64,000 nt of DNA from Flavivirga eckloniae. GTDB lineage: Bacteria; Bacteroidota; Bacteroidia; Flavobacteriales; Flavobacteriaceae. A program made the position numbers and the translations under genes. Under the pieces are notes generated by a model. The model had not been told where the DNA came from and made no database searches. It saw only the letters and a list, made by a program, of their open reading frames with translations. Positions 51,914 to 64,000 of the stretch are shown in pieces (within the stretch, counting starts at the first letter, position 1; each line of letters opens with the position of its first letter). Location: NCBI RefSeq assembly GCF_002886045.1, contig NZ_CP025791.1, positions 1,875,001 through 1,939,000 of the forward strand. The letters run 5' to 3'.

Positions 51914-52350
51914 TGTCGAAAGTTGAAGATTTTCTTACTCCTTCCGAAGAACAAGAAATTGTTGAGGCTATTAGACAGGCTGAACTAAACACTTCTGGAG
52001 AAATAAGAGTTCATATTGAAAAAACCTCAAATGGAGATGCCACTAATCGTGCTTTAGAACTTTTTCATACCTTAAAGATGGATAACACCAGGCTTCAAAA
52101 TGGAGTGCTAATTTACGTAGCCATTGAAGACAAAGCCTTTGTTATTTATGGAGATAAAGGTATAAACGATGCTGTTTCAAGCGATTTTTGGGATAGCACC
52201 AAAGACATAATACAATTCCATTTTAAAAAAGGGGATTTTAAACAAGGATTGATTGAAGGCGTCTTAAAATCTGGAGAACAACTAAAACAGTATTTCCCTT
52301 ATACAGATTCGGACATCGATGAGCTCCCAAATGAAATTTCAAAAGGTTAA
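51913..52350 (+). CDS. TPM domain protein without membrane anchor
   Basis: 145 residues with a TPM phosphatase-like domain throughout (LTPSEEQEIVEAIRQAELNTSGEIRVHIE, AFVIYGDKGINDAV). No signal peptide or span, so cytoplasmic, unlike its neighbour. TPM proteins often accompany LemA. Overlaps lemA by one base. Confidence 0.9.
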   Translation: MSKVEDFLTPSEEQEIVEAIRQAELNTSGEIRVHIEKTSNGDATNRALELFHTLKMDNTRLQNGVLIYVAIEDKAFVIYGDKGINDAVSSDFWDSTKDIIQFHFKKGDFKQGLIEGVLKSGEQLKQYFPYTDSDIDELPNEISKG

Positions 52351-52360
52351 GATTAAAGAA

Positions 52361-53194
52361 ATGCAGTTACCTACAAAACACAAAAACATTATTATTTCTT
52401 TGTTCCTTTCACTCTTTGTTTTAGGGACTACTTCTGCTCAATTTAAAATACCTAAAAAGCCTTCAGATAAAAAGCAAACTTTTGTATACGACTATACCAG
52501 TCCTAAGTTACTTTCAAAAAGAGACAGTACTGAACTAGCGGTTAAACTTAGAAAGTATTCTGACACTACTTCTACTCAAATAGTTGTAGCTATTATTAAT
52601 TCTACAGAAGGAGAATATATTAATTTTTTAGGAGCTCAATGGCTGGATGAATGGGGTATTGGGCAAGCCAAAAAAGACAATGGCATATTGATATTATTAG
52701 CCAAAAACGATAGAAAAATAGGAATAAACACGGGGTATGGTATTGAACATCTTTTAACAGATGCATTATCTAAACGCATTATAGAAAGTGATATAATCCC
52801 TTATTTCAAACGAAACGATTACTATGGTGGTTTAAATAGAGGAACAGATGCTATTTTTGAAGTATTAAAAGGCGAATATAAAGGTTCCCGTAAATCATCT
52901 AATAAAGGCTTTCCTGTAGGGCTTATATTTATATTCTTTTTTATTTTTATTGTTATTCTCATTTCAATATCCAAGAATAAACGTGGCGGCGGCGGTAGTA
53001 ATAAAGGAAATAGGTCTGCCGCTGCTGATATACTAGAAGCTATTATCTTAAGTAATATGGGACGTGGTAGCTTTGGAAAATCATCCAGTGGTTGGGGCGG
53101 AAGTTCTGGTGGAGGATGGTCATCAGGCGGTGGTTTTGGTGGTGGATTTGGAGGCGGTTCCGGCGGAGGTGGAGGCGCATCAGGTGGCTGGTAA
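52361..53194 (+). CDS. TPM domain protein, YgcG-like, Gly-rich tail
   Basis: 277 residues from the ATG at 52361; an upstream start at 52319 would overlap the previous gene by 32 bases. The signal peptide (ending TSAQ) is followed by a TPM domain (about 40-180), a membrane span (about 188-208), and a tail of Gly/Ser repeats ending ASGGW. This is the exported partner of the LemA/TPM set. Confidence 0.92.
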   Translation: MQLPTKHKNIIISLFLSLFVLGTTSAQFKIPKKPSDKKQTFVYDYTSPKLLSKRDSTELAVKLRKYSDTTSTQIVVAIINSTEGEYINFLGAQWLDEWGIGQAKKDNGILILLAKNDRKIGINTGYGIEHLLTDALSKRIIESDIIPYFKRNDYYGGLNRGTDAIFEVLKGEYKGSRKSSNKGFPVGLIFIFFFIFIVILISISKNKRGGGGSNKGNRSAAADILEAIILSNMGRGSFGKSSSGWGGSSGGGWSSGGGFGGGFGGGSGGGGGASGGW

Positions 53195-53195
53195 A

Positions 53196-55970
53196 CTAAA
53201 ACACATGAAAACCTCTTTCCCTTATTTCTCCTTTTTTACCTAAACTATTAAATTTCCAACTAAAGTTTAACATAAAATACCGTTGTAAAACCGTGCTTTG
53301 AGAGTCTTGTATAAAATTCTGATTTGCAGTTCGTCTTGCATTCGTATTTTGGTTCAATAAATCGTAAGCTTTTAGTGTTACTGTTGCTTTATCTTTCATT
53401 AAAGAATAGGCCAAAGCAGCATTCCAAAACCAGGAACTTTTTTGAAAACCGTCAGCAATATTTGGGTTGTAATCGTATTGTATGTCATTTCTCCATTCTA
53501 AATGTTTAGGTAAAAAGGTTGCTGTTCCTAATCGAAATGAATGATAAAGAAACTCTCTATCTTCAAAGGAATCGATATCGTAGGTATTTTTAGTAAAATT
53601 AACCTGATACTGTGGTCTAAATTCCACAACATCCTTCCATAAAAACGTAACATTAACTCTAGGAGATATTGATGTTACATTGCCCGCATATTGCACTCCG
53701 TTATTATAATTTATACTTCTATTTTTATTTCCGCCAAAGCCGACACCGCATCTTAAGGTTCTTAGCGAGTCTAACTTAAACCTTTTTCTAAAACTTAAAT
53801 TCCCGTTAATTGTATAGTTGCCATTTACATTTGTGTAAGTTGTTTTTCTAACAAAGTTTTCATCTACAATTGTATTAGAAACCACCTGATTGTTTGTAAA
53901 ATTGGCACTAAAATAAGAGTAAATCCCCGTTCCTTTTTGAAAGTCGAAAGCATGATAATTTAAGTGAACCCTGTGGTTGGTGATTGGTTTTAAATTTGGA
54001 TTACCGATTATTGTATTTAAGGGGTCTGAAACGTTTTGAAATGCTTGCAACTGCCTTAACTGTGGTGGATTGTTACTTAGGTTATAGCCCATATACATTG
54101 ATGATTTAGGACTAAACCTATAGTCGAAATTAGAACTTAACTCCTTAGCTTCGAACTTTTGTTTAATACTAAACTCTGGTCTCAACACATCTTTGTTTTC
54201 CAGATTTCTAAACAAATAACTGGTTCTAAATCGAGCAGACCATTTTTTGTTTCTATATCTAATGGATAATTCCGGTCTTAGTATTTCATTTATGTATTCA
54301 AAATCCGTACTTAAATCTGAGTTAAAAACCGTATATGCCCCATTATCATCTTTGTCTAATGTACTTTGTTTATCTTCCTGTTTATTTCGGCTATATCGGT
54401 ACCCTAAATTTAAAAATAATTCCTTGGCTATTATTGGTAGGTTATAATTTATACCAGTATTAATATTATTAGATTTATTGGTTCCTTCTGTAAATTGGTC
54501 TCTAATAATCTCATTAGGGTTATCTCCATATATGCTCGTTTTAGAAGATAAAAAATCATCACTTTCCCTGTTACTAATCTCATTGTCTATATTCAACCTC
54601 AGGTAAGCGCCTTTTGAACCAAAACGCTTTGTAACTTCTATATTGTTACTAAAACTTTTACCAATAGTTTCAACAAGCGACTCGGTATTTGATTCGTTGG
54701 TCAATACTCCTAATTCGTCTTTAGAATTTTCATCTCTGTAAAAAACGGTTTTATTTTTTGTTTGGCTAAATCTAGGAGCAATGTTTATTAATAAAGTAGA
54801 ATCGACTTTAATATCGAATGCCATATTCGCATTATGGCTATCGTTATCGTTGTATGATCTAGAATCTGAATTAGTAAAATATCTGGAATCTGGTAATATA
54901 TTCTCGCGCTCTGTAATTGTTACATTATCTGAACTACTACTTGCATAAAAATAGTCTGATCCTAAATCTAATTGCTCTCCCAATTTATCTGCAAAATTTA
55001 CACCAACATTATTAGAGGTGGTAATACCTTGTCCGCCTCCAAACGATCGTCCTCCTACATCAAAAGAACCATCACCTGAAAAACTGATAGAGTTGCCTCC
55101 ACCAAACATTTTTCTTATTTCTCCAAAACTAAACCCAGGAGAGTTTACATTATTGCCTCCGGCCAATACACTAAACCGTTGGTCGTTATCAAAACGATTA
55201 ATCATCCCTGCAAACTCATACCTTTCATCTGTTCCTCCTCCTGCCGAAGCCCGTCCAAAAACACCTTTATTGTTTTCCTTTTTTACAGTAAGGTTTATTG
55301 TTTTATTTTCTCCATCTCCCCGTTCTCCGGAAAATGCCTGAGCTTTTGTTTTTGTATCAACCACCTGTACTTTCTCAATAATACTCTTTGTTAGGTTTCT
55401 AGTGGTAATGGTTGGGTCGCTTCCAAAAAAAGGCTTACCATTTACAAGAATCTGGCTTACAGATTTACCATTTACTGTTATTTTTCCTTCTTCATCTACT
55501 TCTACACCGGGTAAGACCTTTAACAAATCTTCAACATTAGCGTCTTTTTTGGTTTTAAAGGATTTTACATTAAATTCAAGCGTATCTTTTTTAATAGTAA
55601 TTGGTGCCCTGGAGGTTATAACAATCTCTTCCAACGCATCGGTATCTGTTTGTAATTTAATGACACCTAAATTAATTTCCTTCTTTTTTAGGTTGATGGT
55701 CTTGGTATATGTTTTATATCCAACAAAAGATACGAATAGATTCAAATTCTCATCGCTAGATTTATCTTCTAAAGAAAACTTACCATGCCTATCTGAAATG
55801 GTATAGGTAACCACCGAACTATCTTTTACTCGTTCTAAATGTATCGTAGCAGATTCTAACGGAAGGCTTTCTTCTTCAGAGATCAAAACCCCAGAGACTT
55901 TAAAAGCTTTAGATTGAGAAAAGGATACGGTTACACATAACAATATCGAGCAAAAAATTAATTTCCGCAT
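53196..55970 (-). CDS. outer-membrane beta-barrel protein with carboxypeptidase-like N-terminal domain
   Basis: This 924-residue protein has a signal peptide (VSFSQS), a CarboxypepD_reg-like domain (about 24-105), a plug-like segment (DLLKVLPGVEVDEEGKITVNG..ILVNGKPFF) and a long barrel with Gly/Asn-rich extracellular loops. This matches the OMP_b-brl_3 class related to TonB receptors but lacking SusC partners. No SusD nearby. Converges on the TPM gene with one base between stops. Confidence 0.9.
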   Translation of the reverse strand: MRKLIFCSILLCVTVSFSQSKAFKVSGVLISEEESLPLESATIHLERVKDSSVVTYTISDRHGKFSLEDKSSDENLNLFVSFVGYKTYTKTINLKKKEINLGVIKLQTDTDALEEIVITSRAPITIKKDTLEFNVKSFKTKKDANVEDLLKVLPGVEVDEEGKITVNGKSVSQILVNGKPFFGSDPTITTRNLTKSIIEKVQVVDTKTKAQAFSGERGDGENKTINLTVKKENNKGVFGRASAGGGTDERYEFAGMINRFDNDQRFSVLAGGNNVNSPGFSFGEIRKMFGGGNSISFSGDGSFDVGGRSFGGGQGITTSNNVGVNFADKLGEQLDLGSDYFYASSSSDNVTITERENILPDSRYFTNSDSRSYNDNDSHNANMAFDIKVDSTLLINIAPRFSQTKNKTVFYRDENSKDELGVLTNESNTESLVETIGKSFSNNIEVTKRFGSKGAYLRLNIDNEISNRESDDFLSSKTSIYGDNPNEIIRDQFTEGTNKSNNINTGINYNLPIIAKELFLNLGYRYSRNKQEDKQSTLDKDDNGAYTVFNSDLSTDFEYINEILRPELSIRYRNKKWSARFRTSYLFRNLENKDVLRPEFSIKQKFEAKELSSNFDYRFSPKSSMYMGYNLSNNPPQLRQLQAFQNVSDPLNTIIGNPNLKPITNHRVHLNYHAFDFQKGTGIYSYFSANFTNNQVVSNTIVDENFVRKTTYTNVNGNYTINGNLSFRKRFKLDSLRTLRCGVGFGGNKNRSINYNNGVQYAGNVTSISPRVNVTFLWKDVVEFRPQYQVNFTKNTYDIDSFEDREFLYHSFRLGTATFLPKHLEWRNDIQYDYNPNIADGFQKSSWFWNAALAYSLMKDKATVTLKAYDLLNQNTNARRTANQNFIQDSQSTVLQRYFMLNFSWKFNSLGKKGEIRERGFHVF

Positions 55971-56114
55971 TTTAACAGGGACTTGATGATGAATAATTAT
56001 TGCTTTTTTAAAATACTATAGTTAAAAAAACACCCTACGAAGATAAATTAGTACTTATATAAATTTTCTTAAAAAAGACTTAAATCATTCATAAAAGTGT
56101 AATTATCATACAAG

Positions 56115-58697
56115 CTATTTCTGTATTTCTGCTTTAAAAATGGTTTTTAGTTCTCTATTAGATTTATGCCCCACCTTAGGGTTTACCACTCGGCCTTGTT
56201 TATTAACCAATACGTAGTGTGGGATTCCTGAAATATTGAATTTCTCTGTTAAGTAATTCCATTCGTCTGCAGTTACTCTATAATGCTCTCCTTTTATATT
56301 AGCTATTGAATTTTTCCAGGTATTTTTAGGCGAAGTTTGATTTGTTATATATAAAAATACCACATCATCACCTTTCATTTCTTCTTTAAGTGGCTTAATC
56401 TTTTTTATACTTGATTTACAAGGCCCACACCATGTTGCCCAAAAATCAACGTAAACAACCTTGCCTTTAAACTTTTCAAGCATAGCATCGAATAACTCAT
56501 CTCCTTCTGTTCTATTAACCTTATTAACCGTATAACCTCCTTTTGTTTTGTTTAATTCAATTTCGCGTTTAACCTTCTCATTCTCTAGATCCAAATACTT
56601 TGCTAGAAACGGATCTTTTAACTCAGTTTGTATCACAGCTAACTCATCTCCAGTATATACTTTATAATCATTCAATTTCTTCATAGCCTCTTGCATTCTT
56701 ATTATATCGTATAGAAGAAGCCCATCAGGTTTACCCAAAAAAGACTTAATCTTGTTAAATCTAGTAGAGTAATATCTATCACTACTCATATCTGAATAAT
56801 GTTGTAAATACTTTTCATAAAACTGTCCCCTTACTTTCCCGTATGCTTCATCAAACACACGGTCTCTTTCATATTCTTCTTTGGTTTTCATAACTTTAAG
56901 AGCCTCAATCATTTTCAATTCTTCATCAGATAATGTTTCTTCCTTGTCTTTTAAATACTCAACTATATTTAAAAGAAAATGACTATGCTTAGGCTTCAAA
57001 TTATTTTCTTTTACATAATCTTTATAAGCCTTTGTTTGCTTCTGGTGCTTTTTATAAAACGCTTGTTCAACTTTGCCATGAGTTTTTCTAAAAAGCTCTT
57101 TCTTCTTCATTACTTCAGGCGTTTCTATTTGTTTGCTCATTTCAATCATCTCCAATTCTTCTGCAGTAAGTTCCTTATTGTTTTTTTGCAGCCAATCTGC
57201 AAATTCAACTAAAGTTATTTCAGCAGATAGTTGAGTTTCGAAGATTTCTGCATAAATTAATCTATTTACAAAAAAATAATATTCGCCAGTTAATAAGAAT
57301 TGTTTATTGTTTATTATATCTTCAGAAAGAAAATCATAATAACTTTTGTTAACCCAAAATTCTTTAAAAGGCTTTTTCTTATCTTCCGATTTTGCTTTTT
57401 TGTTCTGGTACTTTAAACTTCTTCTCAACATACTATAATCAAGAACATTCTGGTATGCCTTAAGTTCAATGTCGAGTTTTTTAAGCTGATATCCTTTGGC
57501 ACTTACAAAGTGGCTACTGGCATAATCTTCAAGTGCTTTTAGTTCTTTATCTCTTACATCCAGACACATTTTTTTATAATCTTCAGGTGAAGTTACTCTA
57601 ATATTTTTTCTAGCTTCCTGATGATTATAATAGTTTATAAACTTTAAAGCTTGTAAGTCTGAATTTACATGGGCACAATCGCCCGTAAAAAAGGATTCTT
57701 TACCATCAATACAATGGAATGTTTCCTTACCTGGTTCTACAAAAACCGTAAAAGCACCACTTGGCATGCGTACAAATATGCTTAGCGCATGTGTAATTGG
57801 AAACTCTACTGAAAAACTACCATCATCTGCAATTTTGATTAAATGAGAATCCTGACGTCCAAAAAAGGTATTATTAACATATAAAGTCGCTGTTTTTTGC
57901 CCGGCGTCTGCCGTAAAATTTTTAATAATTCCCGAATACTTTGTTGTTTTCAAATCTAATACTGGTGCCTCATACTCGCTATTATTAGCCAATTTGTAAT
58001 CTGGGTTGTAGATTTTTTCAAGACTATAATTCTGTAAGGTTTTTGGACTTTCACCAAATGCAACTCTTCCATTTTTTTGGCCTTTTGCATAAACTGTTTT
58101 AGCTTGATCTCCTTTTTCTAAAATTATAGTATACTTTTTTCCTTTCTTTTTTATCGACTTATAATACCAAACCTGTTTATCTATAATGGCTTTTTTCGAA
58201 TAGAATCCATAATGCCAGTCATTACTTCCATCGGTTAACATCCAATTTCCCCTAAGTGGTTTGGGCATTCTTAAAACACCATCGTTTTCATTAATTACTA
58301 TACTGTAAGTAAACCACGTTCCTCCTTCATTGGCTTCTCCAAAATCAATTTCGTTAATTGACTTGTCCAGTTTTGGAAAGTATAATTTATAATTTACCTC
58401 ACCGGACTCTGGCATATAATAGCGTTCGGCGAAAGGAATGCCTTCTGTTTTTGTGACGAAGAGTTTTTCATCAGAATCCACATTTTTTATAAAAGTTTCT
58501 TTTGGTATAAAAATCCAATGCCCCGGTCTGTATTTAATGTGAAAATGGAGTACTGTGGTATCTTCTAAAATCTCTATTTTGGTTAATTTTCCAGGAACTG
58601 TACTATATCCATAATCTGGATTTTCAATTACTTTTTGCGAAAACGCATTAAGGCATACCAATAGTAGTAGCAGATTGATTATGAGGCTTTTTTTCAT
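56115..58697 (-). CDS. large secreted TlpA-like thioredoxin with an N-terminal 'GxW' module
   Basis: 860 residues with a signal peptide (NAFSQ). An N-terminal domain includes YKLYFPKLDKSINEIDFGEAN, followed by LRGNWMLTDGSNDWHYGFY (about 148-165), a beta domain with EPGKETFHCIDG, a long helical part, and a C-terminal TlpA-type thioredoxin domain with WCGPC (about 756-760). The helical part has a duplicated 55-residue segment (about 507-560 and 586-640, each with EELxMIE..GKVxxxFYxK). The thioredoxin end (NISGIPHYVLVNK) should reduce or isomerise disulfides outside the cytoplasm. Last gene of a signalling cluster. Confidence 0.85.
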   Translation of the reverse strand: MKKSLIINLLLLLVCLNAFSQKVIENPDYGYSTVPGKLTKIEILEDTTVLHFHIKYRPGHWIFIPKETFIKNVDSDEKLFVTKTEGIPFAERYYMPESGEVNYKLYFPKLDKSINEIDFGEANEGGTWFTYSIVINENDGVLRMPKPLRGNWMLTDGSNDWHYGFYSKKAIIDKQVWYYKSIKKKGKKYTIILEKGDQAKTVYAKGQKNGRVAFGESPKTLQNYSLEKIYNPDYKLANNSEYEAPVLDLKTTKYSGIIKNFTADAGQKTATLYVNNTFFGRQDSHLIKIADDGSFSVEFPITHALSIFVRMPSGAFTVFVEPGKETFHCIDGKESFFTGDCAHVNSDLQALKFINYYNHQEARKNIRVTSPEDYKKMCLDVRDKELKALEDYASSHFVSAKGYQLKKLDIELKAYQNVLDYSMLRRSLKYQNKKAKSEDKKKPFKEFWVNKSYYDFLSEDIINNKQFLLTGEYYFFVNRLIYAEIFETQLSAEITLVEFADWLQKNNKELTAEELEMIEMSKQIETPEVMKKKELFRKTHGKVEQAFYKKHQKQTKAYKDYVKENNLKPKHSHFLLNIVEYLKDKEETLSDEELKMIEALKVMKTKEEYERDRVFDEAYGKVRGQFYEKYLQHYSDMSSDRYYSTRFNKIKSFLGKPDGLLLYDIIRMQEAMKKLNDYKVYTGDELAVIQTELKDPFLAKYLDLENEKVKREIELNKTKGGYTVNKVNRTEGDELFDAMLEKFKGKVVYVDFWATWCGPCKSSIKKIKPLKEEMKGDDVVFLYITNQTSPKNTWKNSIANIKGEHYRVTADEWNYLTEKFNISGIPHYVLVNKQGRVVNPKVGHKSNRELKTIFKAEIQK

Positions 58698-59051
58698 GAT
58701 TGATGAATTTATTAGTAATTACTTGACTTTATTTTGAACTTATTTTCTTCCTTATGCTTTATTCTTAAATTTCTTACGTATACAGTAATATTCACCACAG
58801 CCTCTTTACCCCTATCTTTTAAGGCTGATTTTTCATGTTTTATAATATCTTTAACACATTCTATATTAAATTGAGTTCGATGTAAGTGTAAAATTATTAT
58901 GCTGAATATCAAAATATGACATCTAAGTGTCAGGTTGATCCTTTCGTCTGCAAGATGACAAGTAACATTATTAGTGGATTTATCGTTTAAATGTGCTTGT
59001 TTTAAATCGAATTGACGTTAGTTATATTATTTCTAAAAGAAAAAGCTACTC
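58698..59051. other. 354-base gap between the two TlpA-like genes
   Basis: An open frame of 66 codons (58712-58912, minus) lacks any recognisable feature and is probably not a gene. No terminator or clear promoter was found. Confidence 0.55.
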
Positions 59052-60899
59052 CTACATTTCGCTTTTAAAAATTTTCATTAATTCATCGTTGGTAGGATTG
59101 AACTTCATTTGAGGGTTTACAATTTCGCCTTTTTTGTTAATAAGCGCATAGTGCGGGAAGTATGCAACACCAAACCTTGATGCCAGATAAGCCCATTCAT
59201 CATGAGAAACCCTTAAATGCTCTCCATCAATATCTGCTATTAATTTCTTCCATGTTTTTTCGTCAGATCCTGATTCTACTATATACAAAAACACCACATC
59301 TTCGTTCTTCAAAGTTTCTTTTAAAGGTTTAATTCTTTCCATTCCGGTTAAACAAGGACCGCAATAGGTTCTCCAAAAACCAACATAAACTACTTTACCT
59401 TTATATTTTCCAAACGTTGCTTGAAATACTTCATCATCATGCACTTTGTTTACTGCATACTCAGTCTGCCTATTTTTAGATTTGGCAACTTCAATTTCTT
59501 CTTTTATATTATCATTTAAAAAAGTTAAATAATTTGACAAAAAAGGTGTCTTGATCTCTCTTTTTATATTTTTTAACTCTGCATTTGTATATGGATTAAG
59601 TTTTAAAGGATTTCTGGTATGACCTTGACACGTAATTAAATCTAACATAAAACAGTCCTTTACGTTTAAAAACTCTGCCATATTATCTTGTCTTGCTTCT
59701 GCCATTTGCAACAGTTCTTCAAATGGCTTACTTCTATGTTCTCTAATAGCTTTACAAAATTTAAGTCTAAAAATTAGATCATAATATACTCTGGACAATA
59801 CAGCTATTTTATTATCTAATACATTTTCCAAGATATCATGATAATAAGTATCGTCTACTTTAAACTCCTTTATGGGTATTTTTTTTGCTTCATCTTTTAT
59901 AATCAACTCATTTCTTTTACCAAAACCAAATCTCTTAATTTCATAGTTTGTAACCCAAAATAGGGGCGTAAATTCAATATGCAACCTCTTTAATTGTAAA
60001 GCCTTATTACAGATAAATTGTTTTTGAGTTATAGAATCCATCTGTTTGGTTAACTTCTTAGCGTTTTCAAAACACTTTCTTTTATAATCTTCTGGAGGCA
60101 TTTCTCCTATACCCCTTATTCCTGAAAACGGCATGATCGATTTCATTAAATTTAAACCTGAATTTACCTGTGCTCCATCCTCCATAAATTTTGAATTATT
60201 TTTATGAATTAAATGAAAGACTTCTTTTCCTGGTTCAACAAACACAAGATGGTATCCGTTATATGGTATTTCAACCAGAATATGTGTTGGGCAGGGTACA
60301 GGAAATTTAATCGAAAAACTACCGTCCTTTTTTATTTCAATGACATGAGACTTTGAACTACCGGTAAAGACATTAGAAACCTTGATCGATCCGGTTTTCC
60401 TATTGCTTTTATTCTCTTTTGCAAAGTTCTTTATATAGCCAGAATACGTAGTAAAACCATGTTTTATATCTGCTTCGGTATATCTATCGTTGTTTAAAGA
60501 TTTGTATTCGGGGTTGTATATTCTTTCTGTGCTGTATGTTTTTAACACCCTTGGATCAAGATCAAAATCTACCTGACCATTTTTATTAAGTACAGCATGA
60601 ACTACCTTTAATTGTCCCTTTCTCTCTAAAGTAATGGTATACTTTTTTTCACTTATATCAACAGAATTGTAGTTCCAAACTGCTTTATCAACGATAGCAT
60701 TTTCGGGGTAAAAACCATAATCCCATCGATTGCTTCCATCTGCCAACATCCAGCTCCCCTCCAATTCTTTTGGAAGCATGGAACTATCTTTACTTTGATT
60801 AAAAGTTAAAAATTGGAATTCGGTTTTCTCTATGGTTCCCTGTGCGAAACCTGAGGCGCATAACATTCCTAAAAATAGGAAAACAATGTTTTTCTTCAT
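59052..60899 (-). CDS. secreted TlpA-like thioredoxin paralogue with YCGPC active site
   Basis: 615 residues: signal peptide (SGFAQG), the 'GxW' module LPKELEGSWMLADGSNRWDYGFY (about 42-64), the beta domain with EPGKEVFHLIH, a helical part, and a thioredoxin domain whose motif reads RTYCGPC (about 510-516) rather than WCGPC. Family members almost always have Trp there. It is shorter than the 860-residue paralogue by about 245 residues, largely because it lacks the duplicated helical segment. Same strand as the LytTR regulator upstream. Confidence 0.83.
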   Translation of the reverse strand: MKKNIVFLFLGMLCASGFAQGTIEKTEFQFLTFNQSKDSSMLPKELEGSWMLADGSNRWDYGFYPENAIVDKAVWNYNSVDISEKKYTITLERKGQLKVVHAVLNKNGQVDFDLDPRVLKTYSTERIYNPEYKSLNNDRYTEADIKHGFTTYSGYIKNFAKENKSNRKTGSIKVSNVFTGSSKSHVIEIKKDGSFSIKFPVPCPTHILVEIPYNGYHLVFVEPGKEVFHLIHKNNSKFMEDGAQVNSGLNLMKSIMPFSGIRGIGEMPPEDYKRKCFENAKKLTKQMDSITQKQFICNKALQLKRLHIEFTPLFWVTNYEIKRFGFGKRNELIIKDEAKKIPIKEFKVDDTYYHDILENVLDNKIAVLSRVYYDLIFRLKFCKAIREHRSKPFEELLQMAEARQDNMAEFLNVKDCFMLDLITCQGHTRNPLKLNPYTNAELKNIKREIKTPFLSNYLTFLNDNIKEEIEVAKSKNRQTEYAVNKVHDDEVFQATFGKYKGKVVYVGFWRTYCGPCLTGMERIKPLKETLKNEDVVFLYIVESGSDEKTWKKLIADIDGEHLRVSHDEWAYLASRFGVAYFPHYALINKKGEIVNPQMKFNPTNDELMKIFKSEM

Positions 60900-61054
60900 G
60901 CTAGTTGCTAATAGATTTAATTGTTAATGACTTTGTTTATTTCTTAATTTGTCACAAAACAAACTTATAACACAAGAGGGTACTTCTTGTTTAACAATGA
61001 GCCATTAGTATCATTAAATTAGTATTACTACTTCTTCGACTAGAATTCGGAATT

Positions 61055-61807
61055 TTATTTTAGGTAAGCCAACTTGCTTAGCGTTTGCTCTTTTTTGTGT
61101 TTGGAAACATTAACTATACTACCATCATTCATTAAAATATATCCTCCATCTTTTTTTACAAAAGATTTTACATGAATACTATTTATTAAATGCGATTGGT
61201 GTGTTCTGATAAATTGATGTGAAGATAGCATATCATCCCACTCCTTCAATGTTCTTGATACTAATATAGAGTCTCCATTTGTTAAATAAAACATTGTATA
61301 ATTGTTTTCTCCTTTGCATCTCACAATATCATCAATCAATACAAAATAAAGTTCTTCTGCAGTTGGTAATGCTATTTTTTTAGGTTGGTTTATACTGCTT
61401 AAGTTTTCAACTAAAACTTTTAATTTCTGATTTTCTTTTTTATCTGAAACGACCCTGGCTACTCTAGATACTGCATCTTTTAATTCTTTTATAGACACTG
61501 GTTTCATTATATAATCTAGCGCACAGGATTTAATAGCCTGAAGAAAATATTTGCTGTAAGCGGTAACAAAAATGACTTCAAAATTAACTTCACCTATAGA
61601 CTCTAACAAATCGAAACCGTTCTTTGTTGGCATTTCAATATCTAAGAATACTAAGTCGGGTTGCAACTTCTTTATCGCTTCTATACCTGCTTCGACAGAT
61701 GACTCCATGGCTAAAACTTCTACATCTGGACAGTTTTCTTTTAATAATCCATTTAAATTTTCCAGATTATGAACTTCGTCATCAATTATAATGCTTTTAA
61801 TCACCAT
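61055..61807 (-). CDS. LytTR family response regulator
   Basis: 250 residues: receiver domain with phospho-acceptor in VFLDIEMPTKNG (Asp56) and a C-terminal LytTR DNA-binding domain (about 150-248, ending NVSKHKKEQTLSKL). Paired with the histidine kinase 44 bases upstream on the same strand. Probable targets are the two TlpA-like genes just downstream; the 155-base gap after its stop may carry a site. Confidence 0.95.
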   Translation of the reverse strand: MVIKSIIIDDEVHNLENLNGLLKENCPDVEVLAMESSVEAGIEAIKKLQPDLVFLDIEMPTKNGFDLLESIGEVNFEVIFVTAYSKYFLQAIKSCALDYIMKPVSIKELKDAVSRVARVVSDKKENQKLKVLVENLSSINQPKKIALPTAEELYFVLIDDIVRCKGENNYTMFYLTNGDSILVSRTLKEWDDMLSSHQFIRTHQSHLINSIHVKSFVKKDGGYILMNDGSIVNVSKHKKEQTLSKLAYLK

Positions 61808-61851
61808 TTACGCCCATTTTTAAATCATTTTAAATGCAATTTCTTTTCTTA

Positions 61852-63198
61852 TTAATACCTTAACGGCATTAAAACTTCAACAGTTGTTCCGGTACGACCT
61901 TTACCATCAGAAATATCTGTAATCTCAACTTTTGCATTGGTTTTATAACTTTCATTAATTAAATCAATACGGTTTTTAGCTAATTTTAATCCGTATTTCT
62001 CTCTATTAAAACCTGTATCTTTTTTAGTTTCGGTTGTTTTAATTCCAATACCATTATCTGTAATTAAACACAATAAATTATCTTCTTTGATTTTAAATTC
62101 AATGTCCAGATTTTTTTCTCCCTTTTTTTCATTTAACCCATGTATAATGGCGTTTTCAACAAATGGCTGAATTAGCATTGCCGGAACTTCTGTTAAATGT
62201 ATATCTATTTCTGGGGCTACTTTTATAAGGTAATGAAAAGTAAAGCGTAATTTTTCTAATTCAAGGTATTTTTTTATCGATTCTATTTCATCGAATAACG
62301 GTACCAGACCTTTTTCTGATTTATCCAGAGTTAATCGCATAAGCTGTGAAAACTCAGTTAAATAATGATTTGCATTAGCGCTATCTCCTTTATTTATCAA
62401 ATTTTGGATAGCCCCTAAGGCATTAAACAAAAAATGCGGGTTCATTTGAGAACGAATACTTTTAAGTTGCATTTCTATAAACATACGTTTGGCTACTTCT
62501 TTTTTCTTGGTCAAGGCTATTTTCCACTTAAAAAGATAATAGCCAGTAAAAAAAAGTGATATAATAATTATTGAAATAAAACCTGTAAAGTATTTTTGAA
62601 AAAAGGATTCTTTCTTAAATGGTATATCTTTTGAAAAACTTGTTCTCAAAAAGTGTCCATCTTCATTAAAATAATTAAAAGAAAAGTAATATTCACCACC
62701 CTTATATAAAACAAAATAATGTTTAGTGTTGTTTATTGAAATTGCATAATCTAATTTGTATGAATCATCTAAAAAAAGCACCTCATCTTCTATTATTTTT
62801 ATTTCATTTTTAGAAGCATACCATTTACCCATAATCGATTTGGGTAATTTACTCGTGCTATTCACTTGAGCTTTAAATAGTTTTGTTATTTTATACCCTT
62901 CGTCTAAATAAATGTTAGTAGAATCAATTCCTTTTATACTAACATATTTCACATTAAAATCATCAATACAAGTAAGGTTTATAATCTCATCCTCTTTTAC
63001 TATTTCATTGTAATAATATAATTCAGTCTTAATAACAATGTATTCTTGAGTAACGATAAGCGCTATATCATTTTTCTCGTCTACCCAACTTCCCAAAATA
63101 TGTTCTGGGAGTTGTGAAGGCAGCAGACTTAAATTCTGTCCAAATAATACTATAGGAAGAAAAAGTACAGATAAAAAGAATATGCTTTTTAGTTTCAA
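61852..63198 (-). CDS. LytS-type sensor histidine kinase with duplicated 'GxW' sensor module
   Basis: 448 residues: signal peptide or first span (LPIVLFGQ), two tandem extracytoplasmic modules (LPEHILGSW at about 29-37; LPKSIMGKW at about 118-126), one membrane span (about 204-224), and a His_kinase domain with QMNPHFLFN (His255) and the ATP-binding N/G boxes (ENAIIHGLNEKKG, DNGIGI). The sensor modules resemble those of the neighbouring secreted proteins. It probably signals to the LytTR regulator downstream. Confidence 0.92.
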   Translation of the reverse strand: MKLKSIFFLSVLFLPIVLFGQNLSLLPSQLPEHILGSWVDEKNDIALIVTQEYIVIKTELYYYNEIVKEDEIINLTCIDDFNVKYVSIKGIDSTNIYLDEGYKITKLFKAQVNSTSKLPKSIMGKWYASKNEIKIIEDEVLFLDDSYKLDYAISINNTKHYFVLYKGGEYYFSFNYFNEDGHFLRTSFSKDIPFKKESFFQKYFTGFISIIIISLFFTGYYLFKWKIALTKKKEVAKRMFIEMQLKSIRSQMNPHFLFNALGAIQNLINKGDSANANHYLTEFSQLMRLTLDKSEKGLVPLFDEIESIKKYLELEKLRFTFHYLIKVAPEIDIHLTEVPAMLIQPFVENAIIHGLNEKKGEKNLDIEFKIKEDNLLCLITDNGIGIKTTETKKDTGFNREKYGLKLAKNRIDLINESYKTNAKVEITDISDGKGRTGTTVEVLMPLRY

Positions 63199-63219
63199 AT
63201 AAGGATGCTTTGTTTATTA

Positions 63220-64000
63220 TTATTTTATCTTTTTGTATTGAGTTTCCATATGTCCTCTGGGCCCCAACACATAGTTGCCGTTTATTTTATTTGCGATGTA
63301 CATATTAAATTTTCCCTGGTCATATAATATAAACCAAATGGCATCGTCTGATTTAGACACCGCCACATGATCAATATATTTTTTTTCGTTGCTCAATATA
63401 TTTTCGGGTGTTTTGTGGAAAAAAAATAAATTTTCAGACACGGTAAGCTTCCCTTTTCCATTCTTATTAATCCAATGACCTTTAATGAATTCGGGTACGT
63501 TAGTATCTGGTTTCCTTTTTAAATTGGTCAATTTGTCTGTTCTAATGATCATATTTTCATTATCAAGACTTAAAATTTCAAAAGTGTTTGCAGTAGTTTC
63601 AATCTTAAATTTATTATTTCCAATTTTTTGAATATCAACATAATATCGAATTCTAAAATCAGAAACAACGTAATCCGGTGTTGTAATTAATATAAGTGTA
63701 CCATATTTATCATACCAATTACCAAAAAAATCTTTGGGTAGATCTTTGGGAAAGATGTCTCCATCAGTTTTCACCGTTTTAACTTCTCTTAATTGTTTGT
63801 CTTTATTATTTATTGAAGATTTCTTTTTACTACTTATGTATTCTCGCGTATTATGCCATCTGTCTGACTTAAAGCGGTAACCATTTTTAGAAACATCTAA
63901 TTTATATATAAACCTATTGCCTTTTAGGTTAGATTCACCATAATTTATCTTTTTAACATCTTTTCCTAAGGCGGGGAAATATAGTTTATATATTATCTCA
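63220..64000 (-). CDS. secreted 'GxW' module protein, N-terminus beyond the window
   Basis: The frame is open from the right edge to the stop at 63220; a GTG at 63774 is internal and not the start. The visible part begins YKLYFPALGKDVKKINYGESN, like residues about 100-120 of the 860-residue TlpA protein, then a linker, then two modules (LPKDFFGNW; PEFIKGHW) laid out as in the kinase sensor, ending RGHMETQYKKIK. No thioredoxin domain. It may be a soluble relative or decoy of the sensor; 21 bases precede the kinase gene. Confidence 0.75.
   Translation of the reverse strand, partial: EIIYKLYFPALGKDVKKINYGESNLKGNRFIYKLDVSKNGYRFKSDRWHNTREYISSKKKSSINNKDKQLREVKTVKTDGDIFPKDLPKDFFGNWYDKYGTLILITTPDYVVSDFRIRYYVDIQKIGNNKFKIETTANTFEILSLDNENMIIRTDKLTNLKRKPDTNVPEFIKGHWINKNGKGKLTVSENLFFFHKTPENILSNEKKYIDHVAVSKSDDAIWFILYDQGKFNMYIANKINGNYVLGPRGHMETQYKKIK

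What the first reader, a model, noticed from the sequence alone, without database searches (positions are those of the whole stretch)
56115..64000. Two-component system whose sensor domain is shared with the neighbouring secreted thioredoxins
The LytS-type kinase has two extracytoplasmic modules starting LPxxxxGxW. The adjacent secreted protein (63220-64000) shows the same two-module layout. Both TlpA-like proteins have one such module (GSWMLADGSN, GNWMLTDGSN), and the 860-residue one also shares a YKLYFPxL..I..GE.N segment with the 63220 protein. All five genes are on one strand. I infer a system in which sensor and secreted redox proteins recognise the same ligand or each other. I know of no described system of this form.
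Basis: partly seen in the sequence, partly recalled or inferred. Interest (0 to 1): 0.72.

Follow-up and report, generated by a model that had tools for sequence, protein, structure and literature searches.

The report
Lipocalin-sensor circuit with secreted thioredoxins
In some marine flavobacteria a membrane sensor, a secreted partner protein and secreted thioredoxin-like proteins carry related barrel-shaped domains, and DNA in front of the partner gene and of a thioredoxin gene carries the same switch, so they look like parts of one envelope-sensing circuit whose signal is unknown.

Summary

S-HK-RR is a conserved cassette in five genomes of at least four genera. A TlpA gene adjoins it in only two, both apparently Flavivirga. 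Elsewhere, three-module TlpA proteins follow other LytS-LytTR pairs in two genomes.

New here is a regulatory link. A composite promoter, CTMATT-N15-CTMATT-N28-TAnnTTTG (21-bp repeat spacing as in LytTR sites), precedes S in five of five genomes (one or two mismatches allowed), the TlpA gene next to RR in both Flavivirga-like genomes, and an outer-membrane protein gene in another genus; in the 64-kb window it occurs once, before T615.

Best reading: an autoregulated LytS/LytTR circuit with a lipocalin-type sensor and paralogous accessory protein S, controlling at least one secreted thioredoxin. T860 lies at its old site beside der; no such promoter was found before it. That the barrels bind one ligand, or each other, is inference.

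The parts
63220..64000 (-). S: secreted accessory protein, 358 aa, start beyond the window (64296-equivalent). Signal peptide, N-terminal domain shared with T860 (largely outside window), modules at 63502-63747 and 63241-63504
61852..63198 (-). HK: LytS-type histidine kinase, 448 aa; sensor modules at 62851-63117 and 62614-62853, one membrane segment near residues 199-225, H-box NPHFLFN at 253
   Evidence: PF06580 and HATPase_c over cut-off, model m02fb70fabb88
61055..61807 (-). RR: response regulator with LytTR DNA-binding domain, 250 aa
   Evidence: PF00072 and PF04397 over cut-off
60960..61022 (-). Composite promoter of T615: CTAATT-N15-CTCATT-N28-TAAGTTTG; a third half-site CTAGTC lies 21 bp upstream
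   Evidence: only match in the window with up to 1 mismatch, 0.01 expected
59052..60899 (-). T615: secreted TlpA-like protein, lipocalin-like module at 60510-60782, C-terminal thioredoxin domain with CGPC
56115..58697 (-). T860: secreted TlpA-like protein; domain shared with S at 58278-58640, lipocalin-like module at 57990-58277, C-terminal thioredoxin domain with CGPC; no composite promoter found upstream
53196..55970 (-). OMP_b-brl_3 outer-membrane protein (TonB-receptor type by recall). Possible further member: its homologue in G229 stands beside S-HK-RR with the composite promoter; no such site was found before this copy

Best explanation
The genes form an autoregulated LytS/LytTR two-component circuit. 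HK holds two tandem lipocalin-like barrels outside the inner membrane. S, an old paralogue of that tandem, is secreted and fused to a domain also found on T860. The signal acts on the HK barrels, directly or through S; HK phosphorylates RR; RR binds CTMATT repeats 21 bp apart, 28 bp upstream of a TAnnTTTG -7 box, and raises S-HK-RR and T615 transcription; the secreted thioredoxin acts on the envelope. Shown by computation: shared domains, cassette conservation, shared composite promoter. Inferred: that this RR binds these sites, activation rather than repression, and that S modulates HK in the manner of CpxP or DbfQ. Speculative: that the barrels bind one ligand.
For: S-HK-RR in the same order with short gaps in 5 genomes. 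Best repeat pair of 11/12 or better at 21 bp in 5 of 5 S upstreams; no other period of 8-39 bp exceeds 2 of 5; 3 of 3 at T615, T711 and the G229 outer-membrane gene. -7 box at 28 bp: 6/6 in 7 of 8 promoters, 5/6 in the eighth; 25 of 24000 shuffles give 6/6 at a fixed place. The S site lies 53-56 bp before the start codon in all five. Many LytTR sites are repeats of 9-11 nt with 11-13 nt spacers (PMC4847170, passages). HK, S and three-module TlpA tandems each group as one clade (support 94/91, 98/94, 100/100).
Against: TlpA adjoins the cassette in 2 of 5 genomes only; no site of 11/12 or better lies before a TlpA gene in the three G383 loci held, and G392 is not among the 26 genomes with an A3 hit. 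No composite promoter was found before T860 or the own outer-membrane gene. Operator pairs alone are not enriched in the own genome: 13 against 17 for the reversed control; F. jejuensis has 31 against 14. The own S pair is imperfect (11/12; 15 of 1000 shuffles as good). No binding or expression data exist here.
Confidence: 0.68

Rival explanations
1. Common building block only: the barrel is an envelope domain often reshuffled in Flavobacteriaceae. Kinase and TlpA copies bind unrelated things and stand together by chance; only S and HK work together.
For: T860 orthologues beside der stand without kinase in G061, G044, G132, G145, G169, G265, G374 and G323. Three-module TlpA genes in G250 and G378 have no kinase nearby.
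Against: T615 and T711 carry the same composite promoter as S. A LytTR gene directly precedes the TlpA gene in 4 of 18 loci, 0.05 expected; without the two Flavivirga-like loci 2 of 16, 0.04 expected (assumes 900 genes per Mb).
Confidence: 0.25
2. The barrels dock to each other: HK senses S, or the TlpA protein, through barrel-barrel contact rather than a small ligand, giving negative feedback.
For: S has the same tandem as HK and is co-encoded in 5 of 5. Accessory proteins that regulate kinases are known: CpxP, QseG, DbfQ (search listing and abstract starts only).
Against: Nothing tested here shows binding; no complex was modelled.
Confidence: 0.3
3. The repeats are an inherited stretch of promoter DNA copied with the cassette, not an RR operator.
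For: Own and F. jejuensis upstream regions are clearly related; T615, T711 and the G229 post-RR region occupy the same place.
Against: Motif and spacings persist in four genera while the surrounding bases differ, and upstream of different genes.
Confidence: 0.1

Closest known systems
LytS/LytTR two-component systems (BtsS/BtsR, YpdA/YpdB of E. coli)
   Same: His_kinase and LytTR domains; paired repeats at a spacing in the LytTR range; apparently few targets (YpdB has one, yhjX, PMC4847170 abstract)
   Different: Sensor is a secreted-side lipocalin-like tandem on one membrane segment, not the 7-transmembrane pyruvate receptor of BtsS (title of PMC10653868)
Accessory-protein kinases (CpxA/CpxP, QseE/QseG, DbfS/DbfQ)
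   Same: Periplasmic partner of a kinase; for DbfQ, and here, encoded next to it (abstract starts)
   Different: Here the partner is a paralogue of the sensor domain itself; binding untested
TlpA/ResA thioredoxins of Bacteroidota with long N-termini
   Same: C-terminal thioredoxin domain, CGPC
   Different: Carry the lipocalin-like module; T615 has the S-type promoter
Lipocalin-fold proteins (Tp0751; C-terminal domain of 2qmi; BT_0869)
   Same: Predicted barrel fold, GxW motif (a lipocalin hallmark by recall)
   Different: No family-level sequence match; used as kinase sensor

Membership tests
LytS/LytTR two-component system | His_kinase PF06580 with H-box, and receiver plus LytTR PF04397 partner | tested here: met
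LytS/LytTR two-component system | Target promoters with paired repeats of 9-11 nt, 11-13 nt spacer | tested here: inconclusive
   Paired repeats at 21-bp period in 8 of 8 promoters fit the rule (rule from PMC4847170), but binding by RR is untested
LytS/LytTR with 7-transmembrane sensor (BtsS type) | Several membrane segments forming the sensor | tested here: not met
   N-terminal hydrophobic stretch plus one more in 4 of 4 HK scanned; F. jejuensis HK not scanned
Lipocalin/calycin fold | Eight-stranded barrel with GxW before the first strand (HK sensor) | tested here: met
Lipocalin/calycin fold | TlpA module has the same fold | tested here: inconclusive
Lipocalin/calycin fold | Binds a small ligand in the barrel | not testable with these tools
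   no coordinates or binding data at hand
Any Pfam lipocalin family | match over the gathering score | tested here: not met
   HK, S, T615, T860: none. 13 and 16 members scanned, no lipocalin family among those listed at E <= 0.1
TlpA/ResA-like thioredoxins | Redoxin/thioredoxin domain with CxxC | tested here: met
CpxP-like accessory regulator | binds the kinase and alters its activity | not testable with these tools
   co-encoding only

The most novel reading that the evidence does not exclude
A lipocalin-type ligand-sharing circuit: sensor kinase, soluble co-receptor and the secreted thioredoxin it switches on all carry the same barrel and bind one envelope ligand, so the effector is aimed at whatever the sensor detects.
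Probability: 0.3. Interest if true: 0.78.

Novelty: new variant of a known kind. Interest (0 to 1): 0.6.

Why it matters
It gives a testable case of a kinase whose sensor domain is shared with a co-encoded secreted partner and with an output protein, an input-output match that I do not know from other two-component systems. It adds a lipocalin-like sensor domain without Pfam match over cut-off, and a predicted LytTR operator-promoter for Bacteroidota with fixed spacing that can be used to find targets.

Tried and rejected
Genome-wide regulon by operator alone: 13 exact CTMATT-N15-CTMATT sites in the own genome, not more than the reversed control (17), and 11 of 13 lie inside ORFs of at least 100 aa. 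With a 6/6 -7 box at 28 bp, 3 of 13 remain: T615, a 169-aa lipoprotein-like gene (L141) and a site antisense to a GNAT-like ORF (L147; GNAT by recall) that I hold doubtful. F. jejuensis has 31 sites against 14 for the control; only 17 of the 31 had loci and were looked at: 14 lie inside ORFs, and only T711 has the 6/6 box. Its S site, not among those 17, has it too (L098).

Thiol-switch sensing by the kinase: not supported, not excluded. There is no conserved cysteine pair; one single cysteine (own C77) is at the same aligned place in 4 of 5 HK sensors, missing in G229, and S tandems have none in 4 of 5.

Recent copying of S from HK within each genome: rejected, HK and S are separate clades.

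Foldseek against PDB gave no match at E <= 0.001 for either model; sequence search of PDB with A2 gave only Nup133 at E 0.09-0.5, taken as chance. Four of the five further kinase-sensor hits outside own and G229 (G075, G101, G116, G176) are weak (E 0.001-0.01) and were not used; G542 has stops inside and was not used.

Neighbour count: LytTR neighbours were found by BLAST with the own RR. 18 loci used. Left out: G203 (contig end), G180 (broken gene), G921 C1 (another family), G252 C36:55316 (partial match across the module; no LytTR hit near it), and A3 hits that do not cover the module (G019, G248, G144, G329, G159, G162, G252 C36:16720, second loci of G061, G383 and G921, G914) or lie inside a locus already counted (G228 C4:205050). 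Of these, G159 and the second G061 locus do have a LytS-LytTR pair directly upstream. G228 T3 has an in-frame TGA and was counted; its two pieces were handled apart. The own locus raised the question, so I also give the count without it.

Full report
Observation. The five genes are real and on one strand. The last is cut by the window; its full form, S, is 358 aa. Pfam finds His_kinase and HATPase in the kinase, receiver and LytTR in the regulator, and thioredoxin-type domains at the C-termini of T860 and T615; S and the N-terminal parts have no family over cut-off. NCBIfam gives no match over cut-off for S, HK or the two TlpA-like proteins. Gene names der, TPM, MerR, GntR and the like are recalled labels.

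Shared modules. The kinase sensor finds S at E 3.8e-5. S shares its first 139 residues with T860 at 43%. Three-module TlpA-like proteins (T3) from G021, G203, G250, G378 and G228 hold the tandem of the kinase followed by the TlpA module in one chain; the G228 gene is split by an in-frame TGA. Profile comparisons of the three module types gave probabilities 78, 88 and 87%, with 0 of 200 column shuffles as high in each. Without T3 rows, HK modules 1 and 2 against the TlpA module gave 72.6 and 86.9%; S module 2 failed (0.9%), and some other pairs were weak (44-48% and below). So S reads as a mosaic: the T860 N-terminal domain plus the tandem of the kinase.

Distribution. With the tandem profile A1, 10 of 397 family genomes and 3 of 346 of an order draw (own, G203, weak G542) match at E <= 0.001; a genome-contig scan found 2 loci, Flavivirga jejuensis and what by its length is the G229 contig. 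The S-HK-RR cassette is in own, F. jejuensis, G229, G383 and G392. That the window is a Flavivirga is my inference from 73% identity of the HK sensor. The two same-genus genomes searched, G019 and G248, have no A1 match. In G392 S lacks the N-terminal domain. A TlpA gene follows RR in own (T615) and F. jejuensis (T711). T860 orthologues sit beside der without the cassette in eight genomes. The TlpA N-terminal profile A3 hits 26 of 397 family genomes at 1e-8, partial hits included, and 3 of 296 of a phylum draw at 1e-10 (own and two genomes of one other family). Other LytS-LytTR pairs, with different sensors, directly precede T3 genes in G021 and G228. Among 18 T loci, 4 have a LytTR gene directly upstream, 0.05 expected; leaving out the Flavivirga-like pair, 2 of 16, 0.04 expected (assumes 900 genes per Mb; loci left out are named under Tried and rejected).

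Regulatory link. Upstream of S, all five genomes have CTMATT repeats 21 bp apart (own 11/12, others 12/12), and no other period of 8-39 bp does this in more than 2 of 5. The same pair precedes T615 and T711 (12/12) and the G229 outer-membrane protein gene (11/12). In all eight, a TAnnTTTG -7 box (a Bacteroidota promoter element, recalled) follows exactly 28 bp later, 6/6 in seven and 5/6 in G383, where an equally good box also lies at 13 bp. A third repeat 21 bp further upstream (CTAG.C or CTAATC) is present at own S, F. jejuensis S, T615, T711 and the G229 gene. In the window the composite occurs once with up to one mismatch, 0.01 expected. In held DNA (1.56 million bases, both strands, some loci overlapping) every hit with operator score of at least 10, box score of at least 5 and sum of at least 16 lies at these promoters except one in L053. 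The G229 region just after RR keeps a weak copy of the triple repeat (13 of 18), as if a regulated gene once stood there; that is inference.

Mechanism. Confidence 0.68 in an autoregulated circuit that includes T615. Direction of control and the role of S are inferred; ligand sharing is speculative. T860 is probably a bystander in regulation, though its N-terminal domain links it to S. The G229 outer-membrane gene may be a target there; its homologues downstream of T860 in own and F. jejuensis have no site of 11/12 or better.

Comparison and novelty. It is a LytS/LytTR system by its catalytic and DNA-binding domains, with a sensor unlike the 7-transmembrane BtsS. Papers: the searches (open-access papers only) listed no title or abstract start that describes this arrangement; of papers I saw passages of PMC4847170 and otherwise only listings with abstract starts.

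Noticed in passing
window 52319-64000 and L046-L050, L107, L109, L110, L115, L116: The site between der and a TPM/MerR/peptidase gene block (recalled labels) holds a TlpA-family gene in these ten other loci; in G019 and G248 it is a ~740-aa form matching A3 at both ends but not at the lipocalin-like module.
   Followed up: partly
L122 9837-12529: The F. jejuensis T860 counterpart is a 410-aa form without thioredoxin match, followed by a 419-aa ORF without match to the reference proteins.
   Followed up: no
L098 13889-16913, L053 16493-18900, L114 10998-13014, L116 10298-12916: ABC transporter, membrane protein and small regulator-like ORF (GntR by recall) next to TlpA-like genes in several genomes.
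   Followed up: no
L057 4512-9080, L058 5070-9586: LytS-LytTR pair followed by a TlpA-like protein (633, 616 aa) without the CxxC motif, in G159 and G061.
   Followed up: partly
L141 932-1527: 169-aa lipoprotein-like gene of the own genome with an exact composite promoter, repeats ending 60 bp upstream: possible further target.
   Followed up: partly
L017 5387-8242: G228 three-module TlpA gene is interrupted by an in-frame TGA.
   Followed up: no
L122 6899-7261: Stretch before the F. jejuensis outer-membrane gene resembles a decayed copy of the S promoter and first codons (seen by eye).
   Followed up: no
window 61852-63198 (HK residue 77): A single cysteine at the same aligned place in 4 of 5 HK sensors, absent in G229.
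   Followed up: no
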